DNA of 64,000 bases from Tistrella mobilis (GTDB lineage: Bacteria > Pseudomonadota > Alphaproteobacteria > Tistrellales > Tistrellaceae): positions 310,001 through 374,000 of the forward strand of contig NZ_CP121017.1 in assembly GCF_041468085.1 (NCBI RefSeq). The letters are read 5' to 3'. The position numbers and the translations under genes are program-made. Position 1 is the first letter of the stretch. Each line of letters opens with the position of its first letter. Below the pieces are notes generated by a model. The model was given only the letters and a program-made list of their open reading frames with translations, searched no databases and was not told the origin of the DNA. This document shows positions 50,362 through 57,678 of the stretch, in pieces.

Positions 50362-51963
50362 ATGACACTCAGGGCCGTTGCCGTCTCCGCCCCCGACTGG
50401 GTGGCGGGTGCGAAGGATGATCGTGCGCTGAACAGCCGCGACGCGGCGAGCCTGTACAATGCCTGCAGGGTCGCCGCGGCCGAAGCTGCGGCCGGCCGTG
50501 GCGCCTGGGGCGCCTCCAATTGGGCAGCGGCCGATTCCCGTGCCGCCCGCGCTGCCGCCCGGGCCTCGACCCTGTTGATGTATTCCATGGACGAGATGCC
50601 GGCCTTCCGGGCATTGATCGAGCGGCAGCGCCCGAACCTGCTGCTGATCGGCGCCATGTCGCTCTGCCTGCCCGGCGCGGTCGCCTGCGCGCGGGAGGCG
50701 CGCGAGATCCTGGGGGATCAGGTGGCGATCGTCCTCGGCGGGCGTCACGCAAGCGAAACCGTGTGGCTTGCAGACCGGAGCGACCGGCGACCGGCCGCGC
50801 TCCGGCACCATGTCGGGGCGCCGCTGGAGCTGATCCATGCCGGACGACTGCCGGCTGTGTTCGACGCCGTTGCCATGGGTGATGGCGAACACCTCATCGC
50901 GGCCCTGGGCCGTGCCGTGGAGGCGGCCGTGCTTCGGGGCCTGCATCCGACCGCGCTGTTCCACGAGATCGACCCGGCGACGCCCGGTGACTGGATTCTC
51001 GGTCTCGATGATCGCGGCCGCCCCGGCTATCTGGTGTCACGGGGGGTGGCGATGAACCAGATGGCCCTGCCCAGCCCTGCCGAGACCTTCGGTGTTTCGG
51101 CGAGTTTCGGCGTGTTCGGCGGGCGCATGACGGCGCATGTCTTCAGCGATATCGGCCGTGGCTGTGTCTATGACTGCAACTTCTGTTCGGAGCGGGTCTC
51201 GGCCACCGGTGGGGTGCGCGACCTTGCCAACAGCGCCGACCGGCTGCACGGCCAGCTTGCCGCCGCCTGCCGGACCATTGCCGAAGACTGGCCGGGCCGT
51301 CGGGCCAGCGCCTTCTGCGAAGATTCGGTACTGCTGGGCGGCGCCACCCGATTGATCGACCGGTTCTGCGACCTGATGGACCGCAAGCCGCTCGACATCC
51401 GTTTCGGCGGCCAGCTGACCATCGACCAGATCCTGACCCGGCCCGCCGAGGTGGCGCGCCTGGCCCGTGCCGGCCTATCCTATGTGTTCATCGGGGTCGA
51501 GACCCTGTCGCCAGAGGAGATCGGGGGCATGAGCAAGGATGTCGGCCGCAAGCGTGCCTCGTGGACCGATCGTATGCACCGCGCCTTCGACGTGCTGGGA
51601 GAGGCCGGTATCGATTGCGGCTGTGCGGTTCTGTTCGGCCTGGGTGAACGCCATGAGAGCCGCCTCGCCCTGCTCGACACCCTCGATCGGTTCCGCCGCA
51701 GCCACGGCGCCCCGGACCCGATCAGTCTGAACTGGGCGGTCCAGCACCCCCTCTGCGGCGAGGATGGCGGCGCCGGTTATGACTATGTCGACTGGGGCAC
51801 GCCGGAAGGTCCTTATCTGGACCTGTTCCACAATTTCGGCGAGGCGTCGCTGCGCTACCCGCTGCCGCAGGTGGGCGCGCCGCGGCTGGCCGAGGTGGCG
51901 GAAGTTGTCGCCATGGCCGATGCGGTGCGTGGTCGGCCCCTCGGCGGCAGGCTTGCCTCGTGA
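50362..51963 (+). CDS. Radical SAM enzyme with B12-binding-like N-terminal domain
   Basis: Enzyme of 533 residues. The N-terminal third looks like a cobalamin-binding Rossmann fold (LLLIGAMSLCLPGA, then VAIVLGGRHASE). The radical SAM domain has the 4Fe-4S motif C268-x3-C272-x2-C275 (GCVYDCNFC). The core continues with RFGGQLTIDQI and FIGVETLSPEE. No family-specific function is recognised. The start is ATG 50362; a TTG at 50278 is an alternative. It overlaps the PLP enzyme gene by four bases (GTGA), so they work together. Confidence 0.8.
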   Translation: MTLRAVAVSAPDWVAGAKDDRALNSRDAASLYNACRVAAAEAAAGRGAWGASNWAAADSRAARAAARASTLLMYSMDEMPAFRALIERQRPNLLLIGAMSLCLPGAVACAREAREILGDQVAIVLGGRHASETVWLADRSDRRPAALRHHVGAPLELIHAGRLPAVFDAVAMGDGEHLIAALGRAVEAAVLRGLHPTALFHEIDPATPGDWILGLDDRGRPGYLVSRGVAMNQMALPSPAETFGVSASFGVFGGRMTAHVFSDIGRGCVYDCNFCSERVSATGGVRDLANSADRLHGQLAAACRTIAEDWPGRRASAFCEDSVLLGGATRLIDRFCDLMDRKPLDIRFGGQLTIDQILTRPAEVARLARAGLSYVFIGVETLSPEEIGGMSKDVGRKRASWTDRMHRAFDVLGEAGIDCGCAVLFGLGERHESRLALLDTLDRFRRSHGAPDPISLNWAVQHPLCGEDGGAGYDYVDWGTPEGPYLDLFHNFGEASLRYPLPQVGAPRLAEVAEVVAMADAVRGRPLGGRLAS

Positions 51964-53210
51964 GCGGGGGGCGGCCGACCCGCCCGGCGGATGACGGCGC
52001 AGTCGCGAGGGCGCGGCCGGCGACGGTCCTGGCCCAGGGCGCACGCTTCCCGCTGGGGCCGGTGGAAACGCCGGTGCCGCCGGTCACTGAGGCGACGACG
52101 GTGCTGTTCAGAGATCTGGATGCGATGGCGCCGGTCGATCGGGACAGCCTCGCCCGTCAGGGCCATGACCCCTTTGCCGGTTTCTATTACGGCGCGGTCG
52201 GCACACCATCCTCAGGGGCGCTGGCGCGGATGGTGGCGGCGGCCAATGGTCTGGCTCATGCGGTGATCGCGCCAGCCGGGCTTTCGGCCTTCATCGCAGC
52301 CCTCTGGGCTTCGGTGAAACCGGGGGAGCGGGTGGCGGTCACGGATGCCGTCACCTATTCGCTGCGCTGGCATCTGGATCGGCGGGCGGCTGCGGCAGGT
52401 ATCGGCATCGACTATTTTCCGCCGGGGATCGGCGCGGGCATCCGTGATGTGCTCCGCCCTGAAACCCGGCTGGTCTGCGTCGAGACGCCGGGGGCCTTCA
52501 CCTTCGAGGTCGAGGATCTGACGGCGGTTGCCGGCGCCACTCATGCGGCCGGTGCCCGTCTGCTGGTCGATGACACCTGGAGCGCCGGCCTTCATTACCG
52601 CCCGGCCGATCACGGTGCCGATCTCGTGCTGCAATCGCTGGCCAAGCTGCATGCCGGGGTGGCGGGCGTGTCGCTCGGCGCGATCTCCACCGGCGATCGG
52701 GCGCTCTACGAGGACGTGCTGGAGGAGACCGCGCTGCAGGGCATGGCCGTTTCGGCCGATGCGACCCAGAAGGCGGCGGTGGCGATGCAGACGCTGGCCG
52801 TCCGCCTGGCCGCCCAGGACCGAACCATCCGGCGCCTGCTGGCGGCGGTGGCGGCGTTGGGGGTGGCCGGCCTGCGCCTGCTGCATCCGGCCATGCCCGG
52901 CCATCCGGGCCATGAGATCTGGGCCCGTGACTTCACCGGCGCCGGCAGCTTGTTTTCGCTGGTGGTGGAGGGCGGCAGCCCGGCCGACGCCGCCGCCATC
53001 GGCCGTGGTCTGTCGCTGTTCCGGCCGGGCTATGGCTGGGGCGGCGCGGTCTCGCTCGTCTCTCCCTTCCTGGCCGGCGACGGGCGGACGGTGTCGCGGC
53101 CGCCGGTCGAAGGGGCGGGCCTCAGATTCTATGCGGGGCTGGAGGATGCGGAAGATCTGGTGGAGGATCTCTGTGATGCGATCTGCCGTGCAGGCCGTGC
53201 AGGCGCGTGA
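51960..53210 (+). CDS. MetC-like PLP-dependent enzyme, divergent
   Basis: Cys/Met-metabolism PLP enzyme of 416 residues. It aligns with cystathionine beta-lyase through EATTVLF, FYYGAVGTPSSGAL, CVETPGAFTFEVEDL, LLVDDTW (D204 for the pyridine nitrogen) and K229 in QSLAKLHAG as the likely PLP lysine. The usual Y-x-R phosphate site is Y-G-A, and the usual T-K-Y is A-K-L, so the active site is altered. The C-terminal Arg segment LRFYAGLEDAEDLV is kept. The product is unknown. Confidence 0.8.
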   Translation: MSGGRPTRPADDGAVARARPATVLAQGARFPLGPVETPVPPVTEATTVLFRDLDAMAPVDRDSLARQGHDPFAGFYYGAVGTPSSGALARMVAAANGLAHAVIAPAGLSAFIAALWASVKPGERVAVTDAVTYSLRWHLDRRAAAAGIGIDYFPPGIGAGIRDVLRPETRLVCVETPGAFTFEVEDLTAVAGATHAAGARLLVDDTWSAGLHYRPADHGADLVLQSLAKLHAGVAGVSLGAISTGDRALYEDVLEETALQGMAVSADATQKAAVAMQTLAVRLAAQDRTIRRLLAAVAALGVAGLRLLHPAMPGHPGHEIWARDFTGAGSLFSLVVEGGSPADAAAIGRGLSLFRPGYGWGGAVSLVSPFLAGDGRTVSRPPVEGAGLRFYAGLEDAEDLVEDLCDAICRAGRAGA

Positions 53211-54810: not shown

Positions 54811-57678
54811 TCAGTCCTCGCTGCCGCTTTCGCCTTCGGGACGACGCGCACGGGGGGCACCGAAGGGGCGATCGCCGCCGGTGCTGCGTCCGCCACGGTC
54901 GTCACGATTGCCGCCGAAACGACGCTCGCCACCGCCGAAGCCGCCACGCTCGCCGCCGCGGTTGTCACCGCCGCGATCGCCGCCACGGTCGTCACGATTG
55001 CCGCCGAAGCGACGCTCGCCGCCGCCGAAGCCGCCACGATCGCCGCCGCGGTTGTCACCGCCGCGGAACCCGCCGCGATCACCGCCCCGGTCGTCGCGAT
55101 TGCCGCCGAAACGACGCTCGCCACCGCCGAAGCCGCCACGCTCGCCGCCGCGGTTGTCACCGCCGCGGAACCCGCCGCGATCGCCGCCACGGTCGTCGCG
55201 ATTGCCGCCGAAACGACGCTCGCCGCCGCCGAAGCCGCCACGCTCGCCGCCGCGGTTGTCGCCGCCGCGGAACCCGCCGCGATCACCGCCGCGGTCGTCG
55301 CGGTTGCCGCCGAAACGACGCTCGCCACCGCCGAAGCCGCCACGCTCGCCGCCGCGGTTGTCGCCGCGGTTGTCGCCGCCGCGGAACCCGCCGCGGTCGT
55401 CGCGATTGCCGCCGAAACGACGCTCGCCGCCGCCGAAGCCGCCACGCTCGCCGCCGCGGTTGTCACCGCCGCGGAACCCGCCGCGATTGCCGCCCCGGTC
55501 GTCGCGATTGCCGCCGAAACGACGCTCGCCGCCACCGAAGCCGCCACGCTCGCCGCCGCGGTTGTCGCCGCCACGGAACCCGCCGCGATCACCGCCGCGG
55601 TCGTCGCGATTGCCGCCGAAACGACGCTCGCCGCCGCCGAAGCCGCCGCGATCGCCGCCGCGGTCGTCGCGATTGCCGCCGAAACGACGCTCGCCGCCGC
55701 CGAAGCCGCCGCGATCGCCGCCGCGGTCGTCGCGATTGCCGCCGAAACGACGCTCGCCGCCGCCGAAGCCGCCGCGATCGCCGCCACGGTCATCACGATT
55801 GCCGCCGAAACGACGCTCGCCGCCGCCGAAGCCGCCGCGATCGCCGCCACGGTCATCACGATTGCCGCCGAAACGACGCTCGCCGCCGCCGAAGCCGCCG
55901 CGATCGCCGCCACGGTCATCACGATTGCCGCCGAAACGACGCTCGCCGCCGCCGAAGCCGCCGCGATCGCCGCCACGGTCGTCGCGATTGCCGCCGAAAC
56001 GACGCTCGCCGCCGCCGAAGCCACCGCGATCGCCGCCACGGTCATCACGATTGCCGCCGAAACGACGTTCGCCGCCACCGAAGCCGCCGCGATCACCGCC
56101 GCGATCGTCACGGCCACGGAAGCCGCCGCGATCACCACCGCGGTCGTCGCGGTCGCCGAACTCGCGCCGGCCGCCGCCGAAGCCGCGGCGGTCGCCACGG
56201 CCGGCCTCGCGGGCCCGCTGCTCGGCAATCGCGGCGTCGACTTCTTCGTCCTTCTCGTCCTTCAGCGGGCTCCAGCCTTCGCGACGATCATCCCGGCGGT
56301 CGTCCCGACGATCGTCCCGGCGATCACCGGCCACGTGCAGGCCGCGGGTCGGGCGGTCGGTGTTGTGGAACTCGCGCTGGCGGCGCTTGTCCTGGATGGC
56401 ACGCGACGACGGGGCCTGGGGCGCATCGACCGGGTGCGCGAGCGTCAGCAGCTCGTCATCATCCTCGTCGTCGCCGAGGTCTTCGTCCTCGTCTCCATCG
56501 TCATCTTCATCTTCATCGTCGCCGTCGAAATCGGCGTCGTCCTCGAAGTCCTCGGCCTCGTCATCGCCTTCGGTCAGCTCTTCGGCCCGGGCGATCAGGG
56601 CTTCGAGATCCTCAAGGGTCTCGACCTCGATCTCGTCGAGTTCCTCTTCGAACTCGTCGTCCTCGAACTCTTCCTCACCGTCGAAGTCATCCTCGCCCTC
56701 GATGTCATCGTCCTCGATGAAGCGGGCATCCGGGATCTCGTCGGCCGCGGGGCGCTTGGCCTGGGCGGCGGCAGGGGCGGCGGCGGCGGTCTCGTCCGCG
56801 GCAGGCCCGGTCTTCTCGACCTTCTTGGTCTCGTCGGTCATCTTGTCGATCATTTCTGGTGCAGGCGCGCCGGTCCTGGCGGCCTGGCGCCGGAGCGGGG
56901 CGTCACGCCCGGTCTCGGGCAGATGAAGGCCTTCAGCGAGTGAGCCCAGCTGGTCCTTCAGCATGCGGGCGGTCACCTCGCGCACCTCTCCAGGGTGCAT
57001 GCGGCCGATCTGGAATGGTCCATAGGCGACACGGATCAGCCGGCTGACCGGGTGTCCGAGGCTTTCGAGGACCCGTCTGATTTCGCGATTCTTGCCTTCG
57101 GTCAGCACCACCGAAAGCCACGCATTCGTGCCCTCGTGCTCGATCTCCACTTCGATCGGGCCGTAACGGACACCTTCGACGGTCATACCCTGGGCCAGCC
57201 GTCCGATCGCATCGGCGTCGGGCGTGCCATAGACACGCACCCGATAACGGCGGCGCCAGGCGGTTTCGGGGCTCTCTAGACGACGGGCGAGTTCGCCGTC
57301 GTTGGTGAGGAGCAGGAGCCCTTCAGAGTTGTAGTCGAGGCGCCCCACGCTCACCACGCGGGGAAGATCTGCCGGCAGGCGGTCGAAGACGGTTTCCCGC
57401 CCTTCAGGATCATGGTTGGTCGTGATCAGCCCGCGTGGCTTGTGATAGAGGAACAGCCGCACCGGTTCGCGGGCCGGCAGAGGCCGGCCGTCCACAGTCA
57501 CCCGATCGGCGGGCGTCACGTCGAGCGCGGGGCTGTCGATGCGGCGGCCGTTGACCGCCACCCGGCCGTCGAGGATCAGACGCTCGGCGTCGCGGCGGGA
57601 ACACAGGCCCGCACGGGCGATGGCCCGGGCGACGCGCTCACGCGCGCGGTCCGGCTCGGTCTGAAGGCTGCGGGTCAT
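54811..57678 (-). CDS. RluB-like rRNA pseudouridine synthase with acidic and RGG-repeat tail
   Basis: A 955-residue protein. An S4 domain (about 13-60) and a pseudouridine synthase domain (75-235) contain GRLDYNSEGLLLLTNDG with catalytic D115, as in RluB/RsuA. Then comes an acidic segment (321-410, almost all D/E), a DDRR mini-repeat (453-466), and a disordered RGG-rich tail (494-930) built of 15 copies of GGERRFGGNRDD. The tail is far longer than the short extension of E. coli RluB. Expected target: a helix of 23S rRNA. Its ATG overlaps the preceding gene by four bases. Confidence 0.9.
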   Translation of the reverse strand: MTRSLQTEPDRARERVARAIARAGLCSRRDAERLILDGRVAVNGRRIDSPALDVTPADRVTVDGRPLPAREPVRLFLYHKPRGLITTNHDPEGRETVFDRLPADLPRVVSVGRLDYNSEGLLLLTNDGELARRLESPETAWRRRYRVRVYGTPDADAIGRLAQGMTVEGVRYGPIEVEIEHEGTNAWLSVVLTEGKNREIRRVLESLGHPVSRLIRVAYGPFQIGRMHPGEVREVTARMLKDQLGSLAEGLHLPETGRDAPLRRQAARTGAPAPEMIDKMTDETKKVEKTGPAADETAAAAPAAAQAKRPAADEIPDARFIEDDDIEGEDDFDGEEEFEDDEFEEELDEIEVETLEDLEALIARAEELTEGDDEAEDFEDDADFDGDDEDEDDDGDEDEDLGDDEDDDELLTLAHPVDAPQAPSSRAIQDKRRQREFHNTDRPTRGLHVAGDRRDDRRDDRRDDRREGWSPLKDEKDEEVDAAIAEQRAREAGRGDRRGFGGGRREFGDRDDRGGDRGGFRGRDDRGGDRGGFGGGERRFGGNRDDRGGDRGGFGGGERRFGGNRDDRGGDRGGFGGGERRFGGNRDDRGGDRGGFGGGERRFGGNRDDRGGDRGGFGGGERRFGGNRDDRGGDRGGFGGGERRFGGNRDDRGGDRGGFGGGERRFGGNRDDRGGDRGGFGGGERRFGGNRDDRGGDRGGFRGGDNRGGERGGFGGGERRFGGNRDDRGGNRGGFRGGDNRGGERGGFGGGERRFGGNRDDRGGFRGGDNRGDNRGGERGGFGGGERRFGGNRDDRGGDRGGFRGGDNRGGERGGFGGGERRFGGNRDDRGGDRGGFRGGDNRGGERGGFGGGERRFGGNRDDRGGDRGGFRGGDNRGGDRGGFGGGERRFGGNRDDRGGDRGGDNRGGERGGFGGGERRFGGNRDDRGGRSTGGDRPFGAPRARRPEGESGSED
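54895..55600. repeat. Irregular repeats of the RluB tail, long-unit array
   Basis: Seven copies of the ERRFGGNRDD-encoding sequence are separated by variable RGGDNRGGERGGFG-type insertions, with a predominant unit near 102 bases and several variants. In-frame with the tail. Confidence 0.85.
55600..56110. repeat. 63-bp minisatellite array in the RluB tail gene
   Basis: Eight in-register copies of a 63-base unit encoding 21 residues, near-identical, with synonymous changes among them. Unit length is a multiple of three, so copy number changes keep the frame. Confidence 0.88.

What the first reader, a model, noticed from the sequence alone, without database searches (positions are those of the whole stretch)
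50362..53210. Two-gene operon of radical SAM enzyme and divergent MetC-like PLP enzyme
A radical SAM protein with a B12-binding-like N-terminus (C-x3-C-x2-C at 268-275) is translationally coupled (GTGA) to a MetC-fold enzyme whose phosphate site and lysine motif differ from known lyases (YGA in place of Y-x-R; AKL in place of TKY). No known family in my memory pairs these. It could be a small pathway for an unusual sulfur or amino acid compound, perhaps radical methylation followed by C-S chemistry. The function is inference; the coupling and motif changes are seen.
Basis: partly seen in the sequence, partly recalled or inferred. Interest (0 to 1): 0.62.

Follow-up and report, generated by a model that had tools for sequence, protein, structure and literature searches.

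The report
Radical-SAM and PLP amino-acid pathway pair
Two overlapping genes, inherited together in scattered bacteria, encode a radical enzyme and a reshaped methionine-type enzyme that probably make an unusual small amino acid by a route for which no published account was found.

Summary
In Tistrella, 50362-51963 encodes a radical SAM protein of NCBIfam TIGR04434 (984 bits, cut-off 550), a function-unknown family. The next gene, 51960-53210, overlaps it by GTGA and encodes a Cys/Met-metabolism PLP enzyme below every equivalog cut-off shown. The pair recurs: 3 Tistrella genomes, Brucella pecoris, Pandoraea, 3 Pseudomonas and 2 Burkholderiaceae loci. The linked PLP enzymes form one clade (100/99) against 18 family members and share changed active-site positions: S339 to G, the PLP-stacking Tyr shifted by one, no R58. 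Elsewhere the same radical SAM gene sits with an AdoMet decarboxylase (Rhizobium symbiotic plasmids) or a B3/4-domain gene (one Pseudomonas). Some pair-containing clusters add EamA-type exporters, GntR regulators, spare D-Ala-D-Ala ligases or an alanine racemase; two carry a tRNA-Ala-like gene without an alanine anticodon. Best reading: the radical SAM enzyme alters SAM (or another methionine-type substrate), probably by C-methylation, and the PLP enzyme turns the product into a small alanine-like amino acid. This parallels the known Orf29/Orf30 route to 2-methyl-ACC, but with another PLP family. Pairing, coupling and co-inheritance are shown; the chemistry is inferred.

The parts
50362..51963 (+). 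radical SAM protein, 533 aa, NCBIfam TIGR04434 (rSAM_Pput_1520)
   Evidence: 983.9 bits vs curated cut-off 550; PF04055 35.1 vs 29.5
51163..51186 (+). C-x3-C-x2-C motif, C268-C272-C275, expected [4Fe-4S]/SAM site
   Evidence: read from the sequence; the three Cys are present in all 14 aligned rows
51960..53210 (+). PLP enzyme, 416 aa, Cys/Met metabolism family (PF01053), divergent subfamily that accompanies TIGR04434
   Evidence: PF01053 161 bits vs 27; one clade with 8 other linked enzymes, support 100/99
51960..51963 (+). GTGA overlap of PLP start and rSAM stop
   Evidence: the PLP start also lies in or at the end of the rSAM frame in the other PLP-linked junctions printed
52188..52196 (+). 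Y77-G78-A79: position of E. coli MetC Y56-G57-R58; Arg58 lost
   Evidence: alignment
52356..52358 (+). Y133, aligned one place after E. coli MetC Tyr111 in 9 of 9 linked enzymes
   Evidence: two alignments (with 7 linked enzymes, 96 with 9)
52644..52646 (+). K229, aligned with the PLP-binding Lys210 of E. coli MetC, in the context A-K-L-H
53034..53036 (+). G359, at the position of MetC Ser339; Gly in 9 of 9 linked enzymes, Ser (15) or Asn (3) in the 18 others
53124..53126 (+). R389, aligned with MetC Arg372 (substrate carboxylate binding, recalled); conserved

Best explanation
The two genes form a minimal biosynthetic module for a non-protein amino acid. Step 1: the radical SAM enzyme, probably cobalamin-dependent, alters SAM itself or another methionine-type amino acid, most likely by C-methylation. 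Step 2: the MetC-fold PLP enzyme forms the external aldimine through Lys229, removes the alpha-proton, and expels the sulfonium (or other gamma) leaving group. This gives a small alanine-like amino acid of the 1-aminocyclopropane-carboxylate or vinylglycine type. In some relatives the product would be exported by an EamA-type transporter, and spare alanine racemase or D-Ala-D-Ala ligase genes would protect the producer or build the product further. Shown: both enzyme families, overlap, co-inheritance, the PLP subfamily and its changed active-site residues, and the gene neighbourhoods. Inferred: substrate, methylation, cobalamin use, ring closure or elimination, product, export and biological role.
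For: Conserved pair with overlapping genes in 10 loci of several genera. The linked PLP clade (9 of the 10) has 100/99 support against 18 others, with 11 diagnostic columns. Where the PLP gene is absent, a speD gene follows the rSAM in the 4 Rhizobium plasmids read (annotated as adenosylmethionine decarboxylase) and in G304. The two SpeD proteins scanned (R. acidisoli, G304) pass the TIGR03330 cut-off, 91.8 and 92.8 bits vs 75.65; this points to SAM as the shared substrate. Loss of Arg58, which in E. coli CBL binds the distal carboxylate of cystathionine (passages of PMC5025676), argues against cystathionine. Precedent: Orf29 (B12 rSAM) C-methylates SAM and Orf30 (PLP) converts it to 2-methyl-ACC (abstract, parts 1, 3 and 4 of 5, and passages of PMC7277169). 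Alanine theme in some pair-containing clusters: two D-Ala-D-Ala ligases in Pseudomonas S31, an alanine racemase in G1209 (328 bits vs 168), EamA/EmrE transporters.
Against: No substrate or product is known. PF02310 does not match the Tistrella rSAM, and its AlphaFold model is unusable (pLDDT 44). Published MeACC synthases are classed as PLP-dependent aminotransferases, not MetC-like, and whether Orf29 is a TIGR04434 member could not be tested. The residue aligned with CBL Pro113 is Ser or Thr in 9 of 9 linked enzymes, substitutions that raise alanine racemisation in CBL, which favours the racemase rival. Tistrella has none of the accessory genes beside the pair: no LPD16-like gene and one D-Ala-D-Ala ligase-level match per genome plus weak partial ones. 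The SpeD partner could instead supply a cosubstrate. One locus (G849) has neither a PLP nor a speD neighbour. Three genes lie between the G1209 alanine racemase and the pair, so it may be unrelated.
Confidence: 0.36

Rival explanations
1. The PLP enzyme is an amino-acid racemase: it inverts the rSAM-modified amino acid (or alanine) to a D-amino acid, which in the larger clusters is joined by D-Ala-D-Ala ligase-like enzymes.
For: Ddl-type ligases in the larger clusters: two in Pseudomonas S31 (HMM), two by reading in Brucella pecoris and G767, one in the Pandoraea stretch and one in the cut G728 contig. E. coli CBL is a promiscuous alanine racemase improved by P113S, A, T or Q; the aligned residue is Ser or Thr in 9 of 9 linked enzymes, though Ser also occurs there in some non-linked members. 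The archaeal Ala/Glu racemase model hits the family (104 bits in Tistrella).
Against: Racemase model far below its cut-off (104 vs 629). The Tyr111 needed as catalytic acid in CBL racemisation is displaced by one position. Arg58, which affects that Tyr's pKa, is lost. G1209 has a dedicated fold-III-type alanine racemase nearby.
Confidence: 0.23
2. The PLP enzyme is a C-S lyase on an rSAM-built thioether or Cys conjugate, delivering a thiol.
For: Nearest named families are cystathionine beta-lyases (271 bits) and the best Foldseek match is E. coli CBL. The larger clusters hold a cysteine-desulfurase homologue.
Against: Below every curated cut-off in the 25 of 45 rows shown. Arg58, Tyr111 position and Ser339 are changed. 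The Rhizobium branch has a speD gene in place of the lyase.
Confidence: 0.17
3. rSAM and its SpeD or PLP partner do not share SAM as substrate: the rSAM makes a modified amino acid of another kind, and SpeD is an anomalous ornithine/arginine-type decarboxylase.
For: Some SpeD homologues decarboxylate ornithine or arginine (PMC10407285: start of the abstract in a listing, and passages).
Against: Both SpeD proteins scanned pass the SAM_DCase_Bsu cut-off. That paper's main text has no occurrence of Rhizobium or of 'radical SAM'.
Confidence: 0.12
4. Chance neighbours: an ordinary MetC paralogue next to an unrelated radical SAM gene.
For: MetC-family paralogues are common in these genomes.
Against: Pairing with overlapping genes in 10 loci, one PLP clade, shared diagnostic residues.
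Confidence: 0.02

Closest known systems
NCBIfam TIGR04434 (rSAM_Pput_1520), hypothetical equivalog
   Same: The Tistrella rSAM is a full-length member (983.9 bits, cut-off 550).
   Different: The model names no reaction; a text search for three literal identifiers gave no paper. Its pairing with a MetC-like enzyme or SpeD was not found described in our searches.
Orf29/Orf30 (and Swb7/Swb6) of 2-methyl-ACC (norcoronamic acid) biosynthesis, PMC7277169
   Same: Adjacent B12-type radical SAM and PLP genes; SAM is C-methylated, then a PLP enzyme completes a non-protein amino acid.
   Different: Orf30/GnmY are classed as PLP-dependent aminotransferases, and the Orf29/Orf30 genes sit in an NRPS cluster of Streptomyces. 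Here the PLP enzyme is of the Cys/Met-metabolism family and I saw no NRPS gene in the stretches read. Sequence relation of the rSAMs not testable here.
Cystathionine beta-lyase MetC (E. coli, PDB 1CL1)
   Same: Same family (PF01053), same fold, PLP Lys, Asp185 and Arg372 equivalents kept.
   Different: Arg58, Tyr111 position, Ser339 and Leu212 (His in the linked clade) changed; below TIGR01324 and PRK07050 cut-offs.
Bifunctional L-alanine/L-glutamate racemase (NF041088; PDB 9iz5)
   Same: MetC-like fold put to racemisation (9iz5 among the VIA matches).
   Different: 104 bits vs 629 cut-off; no direct racemase evidence for the linked clade.

Membership tests
TIGR04434 rSAM_Pput_1520 | score over curated cut-off, full length | tested here: met
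   983.9 bits vs 550, positions 1-515 of 515
TIGR04434 rSAM_Pput_1520 | C-x3-C-x2-C radical SAM motif | tested here: met
   C268, C272, C275; PF04055 35.1 bits vs 29.5
TIGR04434 rSAM_Pput_1520 | N-terminal B12-binding domain | tested here: inconclusive
   PF02310 absent at E <= 1 in Tistrella; below its cut-off (18.2 vs 32.1 bits) in G849
Cys/Met metabolism PLP enzymes (PF01053) | gathering score | tested here: met
   161 bits vs 27
Cystathionine beta-lyase (TIGR01324, PRK07050) | equivalog cut-off | tested here: not met
   235.3 vs 365.9; 271.4 vs 500
Cystathionine beta-lyase (TIGR01324, PRK07050) | Arg58, Tyr111 and Ser339 of the E. coli active site | tested here: not met
   A79; Tyr one position later (Y133); G359
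L-alanine/L-glutamate racemase NF041088 | equivalog cut-off | tested here: not met
   104.2 vs 629
Class B (cobalamin) radical SAM methyltransferases, as a functional group | cobalamin- and SAM-dependent C-methylation | not testable with these tools
   needs enzymology; the next NCBIfam model, HpnR, scores 24.7 vs 650
Orf29/Orf30-type 2-methyl-ACC pair | adjacent radical SAM and PLP genes | tested here: met
   architecture only
Orf29/Orf30-type 2-methyl-ACC pair | PLP enzyme homologous to GnmY/Swb6 | not tested
   no GnmY/Orf30 sequence was held; the paper classes GnmY as an aminotransferase

The most novel reading that the evidence does not exclude
TIGR04434 enzymes C-methylate SAM itself and feed a hub compound that different lineages process in different ways. 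A MetC-fold enzyme acts as a new, independently evolved ACC-type synthase (Tistrella and the other pair-bearing genomes). An AdoMet decarboxylase takes over in bean-nodule Rhizobium. In Brucella pecoris and Pandoraea the alanine-like product enters a pathway that uses D-Ala-D-Ala ligase-like enzymes and a dedicated, non-decoding tRNA-Ala to make a cell-wall-directed antimetabolite.
Probability: 0.14. Interest if true: 0.85.

Novelty: new variant of a known kind. Interest (0 to 1): 0.57.

Why it matters
The pair gives a first functional handle on a function-unknown radical SAM family, including copies near nif genes on Rhizobium symbiotic plasmids. If the PLP step makes a cyclopropyl or vinyl amino acid, it would be a new enzyme family for that chemistry. 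The linked clusters, with spare Ddl or alanine racemase genes, would then be candidate sources of inhibitors of D-alanine metabolism. The tRNA-Ala-like genes in two clusters suggest a tRNA-dependent step that can be tested directly.

Tried and rejected
AlphaFold of the rSAM from 4 sequences reached pLDDT 44; it was not used for fold searches. AlphaFold of the PLP enzyme from 5 sequences (pLDDT 61) only supports the MetC/MGL fold: Foldseek best 1cl1 (E 5.2e-22, TM 0.55), VIA best 5m3z (Z 24.8, rmsd 6.2, 328 aligned). The 50 VIA rows differ by 1.1 Z at most, so this says nothing on specificity.

A PDB sequence search found nothing for the rSAM or for the LPD16-like cluster protein. No Rfam family matches near the pair, ARAGORN finds no tRNA in the window, and no promoter- or terminator-like site was found around the pair by a simple consensus scan.

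Chance adjacency was rejected. A horizontal-island reading of the Tistrella pair on composition was not supported: GC of the pair is 0.704 vs 0.689 for the window and GC3 resembles mutL, and gene order from mutL to rsmD is shared by the three Tistrella genomes. Racemase and plain C-S lyase readings are kept as rivals.

Changed on re-checking: I had written only that the CBL Pro113 position is 'not Pro'. It is Ser or Thr in 9 of 9 linked enzymes, so I raised the racemase rival from 0.20 to 0.23 and lowered the best explanation from 0.38 to 0.36.

The rSAM tree does not settle whether PLP-partnered rSAMs are one clade (support 41/19) and warns of long branches; I do not rely on it. The PLP tree holds 9 of the 10 linked PLP enzymes: the G001 (L048) copy was left out. 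Its 18 other rows come from Tistrella, Brucella, Pandoraea, Pseudomonas S31 and E. coli only, two of them near-identical Tistrella copies; three linked rows, the window's among them, have an unusual letter make-up, and the root is a midpoint. In one search the L048 PLP frame began upstream of the true start, so I quote only the window-versus-L013 dN/dS.

Ten paper searches were made: family identifiers; rSAM with MetC- or PLP-type enzymes; SpeD; Ddl/tRNA clusters; norcoronamic acid; CBL residues; rSAM with racemase/self-resistance. I saw listings only, except for three papers opened: PMC7277169 (abstract, parts 1, 3 and 4 of 5, passages), PMC10407285 (passages) and PMC5025676 (passages). None of the listings described this pairing. 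They cover open PMC papers only; subscription papers may describe it.
Full report
WHAT IS THERE. The window lies in a Tistrella genome (the T. mobilis KA081020-065 locus L013 is 97% identical over the rSAM). ORF 50362-51963 encodes a 533-aa radical SAM protein with C268-x3-C272-x2-C275. It is followed, with a GTGA overlap, by ORF 51960-53210, a 416-aa PLP enzyme. The rSAM is a full-length TIGR04434 member (983.9 bits, cut-off 550); that model is a hypothetical equivalog that names no reaction. The PLP enzyme belongs to PF01053 (161 bits vs 27). It is below every curated cut-off in the 25 of 45 NCBIfam rows shown (best PRK07050, 271 vs 500). Its closest solved sequences and best Foldseek match are cystathionine beta-lyases.

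THE TISTRELLA LOCUS. The pair sits between a phytase-like gene downstream of mutL and a convergent DUF4349-type gene followed by rsmD (these names are my reading of the sequences), in the same order in three Tistrella genomes: the window's, G001 (L048) and T. mobilis (L013 and L049, one genome). The rSAM is 96.8% identical between them and the window while MutL is 93.5-93.7%. dN/dS against L013 is 0.042 (rSAM) and 0.090 (PLP). The pair does not differ in composition from its surroundings. No Rfam family matches near the pair and ARAGORN finds no tRNA in the window.

HOW COMMON. TIGR04434 is rare. Over the cut-off it was found in 3 of 59 relatives, all of the genus Tistrella including the window's genome (11 of 59 at the loose E <= 0.001). 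At E <= 1e-30 it was found in 2 of 398 genomes of the phylum (the window's own and G304), 4 of 398 of the genus of Pseudomonas S31 (S31 itself and three more; 3 of the 4 over the cut-off), 1 of 297 of the family of G304 (G304 itself), 3 of 398 of the family of Pandoraea terrae (itself and two more) and 1 of 369 of the class of S31 (S31 itself). A genome-contig scan gave 10 loci, of which 4 are near full-length relatives (L013-L016) and 6 distant. In plasmids there were 10 records, 9 of them Rhizobium and 1 a distant Streptomyces match.

THE PAIRING IS CONSERVED. A MetC-like gene directly follows the rSAM in the three Tistrella genomes, in Brucella pecoris (L014), Pandoraea terrae (L015), Pseudomonas S31 (L016), G728 (L044), G767 (L045) and two genomes of the Pandoraea family, G1209 (L098) and G1329 (L097): ten loci. 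In each of the nine junctions printed (all but L048) the PLP start lies in or at the end of the rSAM frame (in Pandoraea I placed the start by homology); in L048 the match coordinates overlap by a base. In all six genomes searched (two of them the same T. mobilis genome) the best match to the Tistrella PLP enzyme is this neighbour, though in S31 it beats the next paralogue only 205.0 to 203.1 bits. Loci read that lack the PLP neighbour: G849, G304, the 4 Rhizobium plasmids read out of 9, and the distant Streptomyces match.

ONE PLP SUBFAMILY. Nine of the ten linked PLP enzymes and 18 other family members (17 paralogues from Tistrella, Brucella, Pandoraea and S31 genomes, plus E. coli MetC) were aligned and treed. 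The linked enzymes are one side of a branch with support 100/99, in 100% of 200 bootstrap trees (an earlier tree of 7 and 18 gave 100/100). Eleven columns have one residue in 9 of 9 linked enzymes and in at most 1 of 18 others. They include Ser339 to Gly (G359; Ser in 15 and Asn in 3 of the others), a Tyr one position after the usual Tyr111 (Y133), W137, H231 two residues after the PLP lysine, G236, and a two-residue insertion S63-L64. K229, D204, R389 and W360 keep the catalytic frame. Arg58 is lost in all nine, but also in 5 of 18 others, so it is weak evidence alone. In E. coli CBL, Arg58 contacts the PLP phosphate, Tyr111 and the distal carboxylate of cystathionine, and Tyr111 is the acid for promiscuous alanine racemisation (passages of PMC5025676). 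The linked enzymes are therefore unlikely to be cystathionine lyases; this step is inference. Against my main reading, the residue aligned with CBL Pro113, whose change to Ser, Ala, Thr or Gln raises racemisation in CBL, is Ser or Thr in 9 of 9 linked enzymes. Ser also stands there in some non-linked members, so it is not diagnostic.

OTHER PARTNERS POINT TO SAM. On four Rhizobium symbiotic plasmids the rSAM lies near nif genes and is followed by speD, overlapping it in R. acidisoli and Rhizobium C104 and separated from it in CIAT894 and CFN 42. In G304 rSAM and speD are separated by a transposase-like ORF. The two SpeD proteins scanned (R. acidisoli, G304) pass the SAM decarboxylase cut-off: 91.8 and 92.8 bits vs 75.65. 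The R. acidisoli and G304 rSAMs score 546 and 543 bits, just under the TIGR04434 cut-off. SpeD homologues can be ornithine or arginine decarboxylases (PMC10407285, listing and passages), so this is support, not proof.

ACCESSORY GENES. The larger clusters are those of S31, G767, G728 (cut by its contig end), Brucella pecoris and Pandoraea. Ddl-type ligases: two in S31 (HMM), two by reading in Brucella and G767, one in the Pandoraea stretch and one in the cut G728 contig. A GntR regulator is seen in S31, Brucella and G728, not in the Pandoraea and G767 stretches. An LPD16-like protein (PF18830 39.7 bits in S31 and 27.3 in Brucella vs 27) is in all five, truncated in G728. A cysteine-desulfurase homologue is in four, G728 being cut before it. 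An EamA transporter is in Brucella and Pandoraea. The two genomes of the Pandoraea family add GntR and an EamA- or EmrE-type transporter; G1209 also has an amidase-like gene and an alanine racemase (328 bits vs 168) in the same strand run. G849 has an EamA transporter before, and a B3/4-domain protein (49.3 bits vs 29.3) and a weakly matching methyltransferase-like protein after, the rSAM. Tistrella has no LPD16-like gene and one Ddl-level match per genome plus weak partial ones.

MECHANISM. The closest experimental precedent I know is the Orf29/Orf30 pair: Orf29, with iron-sulfur and cobalamin domains, C-methylates the methionine part of SAM, and Orf30, a PLP enzyme, converts the methylated SAM to 2-methyl-ACC (PMC7277169, abstract, parts 1, 3 and 4 of 5, and passages). 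By analogy I propose that the Tistrella rSAM modifies SAM and that the PLP enzyme expels the sulfonium group to give a small alanine-like amino acid. Cys/Met-family enzymes commonly pass through vinylglycine-type intermediates after gamma-elimination (recalled knowledge), so ring closure or elimination are both open. The alanine theme of neighbouring genes would fit an antimetabolite of D-alanine metabolism. I put about 0.85 on a conserved two-enzyme amino-acid module and 0.36 on the specific mechanism.

LIMITS. Cobalamin use is not shown; the rSAM structure could not be modelled. Orf29 and GnmY sequences were not held. The listings of ten open-access text searches showed no account of the pairing; subscription papers are not covered.

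Noticed in passing
L014:14370-14445 and L015:5172-5248: tRNA-like genes just upstream of the LPD16-like gene in the Brucella pecoris and Pandoraea clusters. Their best complete matches elsewhere in these genomes are tRNA-Ala genes (75-77%), and they keep the G3:U70 pair (alanine identity element, recalled). The anticodon arm is abnormal: in L014 ARAGORN calls only two bases (aa) and the fold gives a 4-base loop; in L015 it calls ACC and I see no U33. Position 73 is T, not A. Possibly non-decoding alanine tRNAs for biosynthesis. ARAGORN found none in L016, L044, L045, L097 or L098.
   Followed up: partly
L046:8330-12320: Pseudomonas G849: EamA transporter, rSAM (422 bits), a stand-alone B3/4-domain protein (domain of PheRS editing, recalled) and a methyltransferase-like protein in a row.
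   Followed up: partly
L035:12001-13475 and L036:12055-14086: TIGR04434 rSAM near nif genes on Rhizobium symbiotic plasmids, followed by speD; the copy in R. etli CFN 42 is broken by a frame change, the three other copies read (L036, L042, L043) are open.
   Followed up: partly
L016:9929-11551: The Pseudomonas S31 rSAM has one in-frame stop (codon 379); pseudogene or sequencing error.
   Followed up: no
L098:3618-10774 (minus strand): Run of closely spaced genes: weak haem-oxygenase-like match (20.1 bits vs 28.9), a protein without Pfam match, PGA_cap protein, alanine racemase, amidase-like, EamA, GntR, beside the rSAM-PLP pair; looks like a larger biosynthetic operon.
   Followed up: partly
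window 54811-57678 (minus strand): Long ORF with an RluB-like start (my reading) and many tandem glycine- and arginine-rich repeats in its second half; GC reaches 0.765 in 55000-55999.
   Followed up: no
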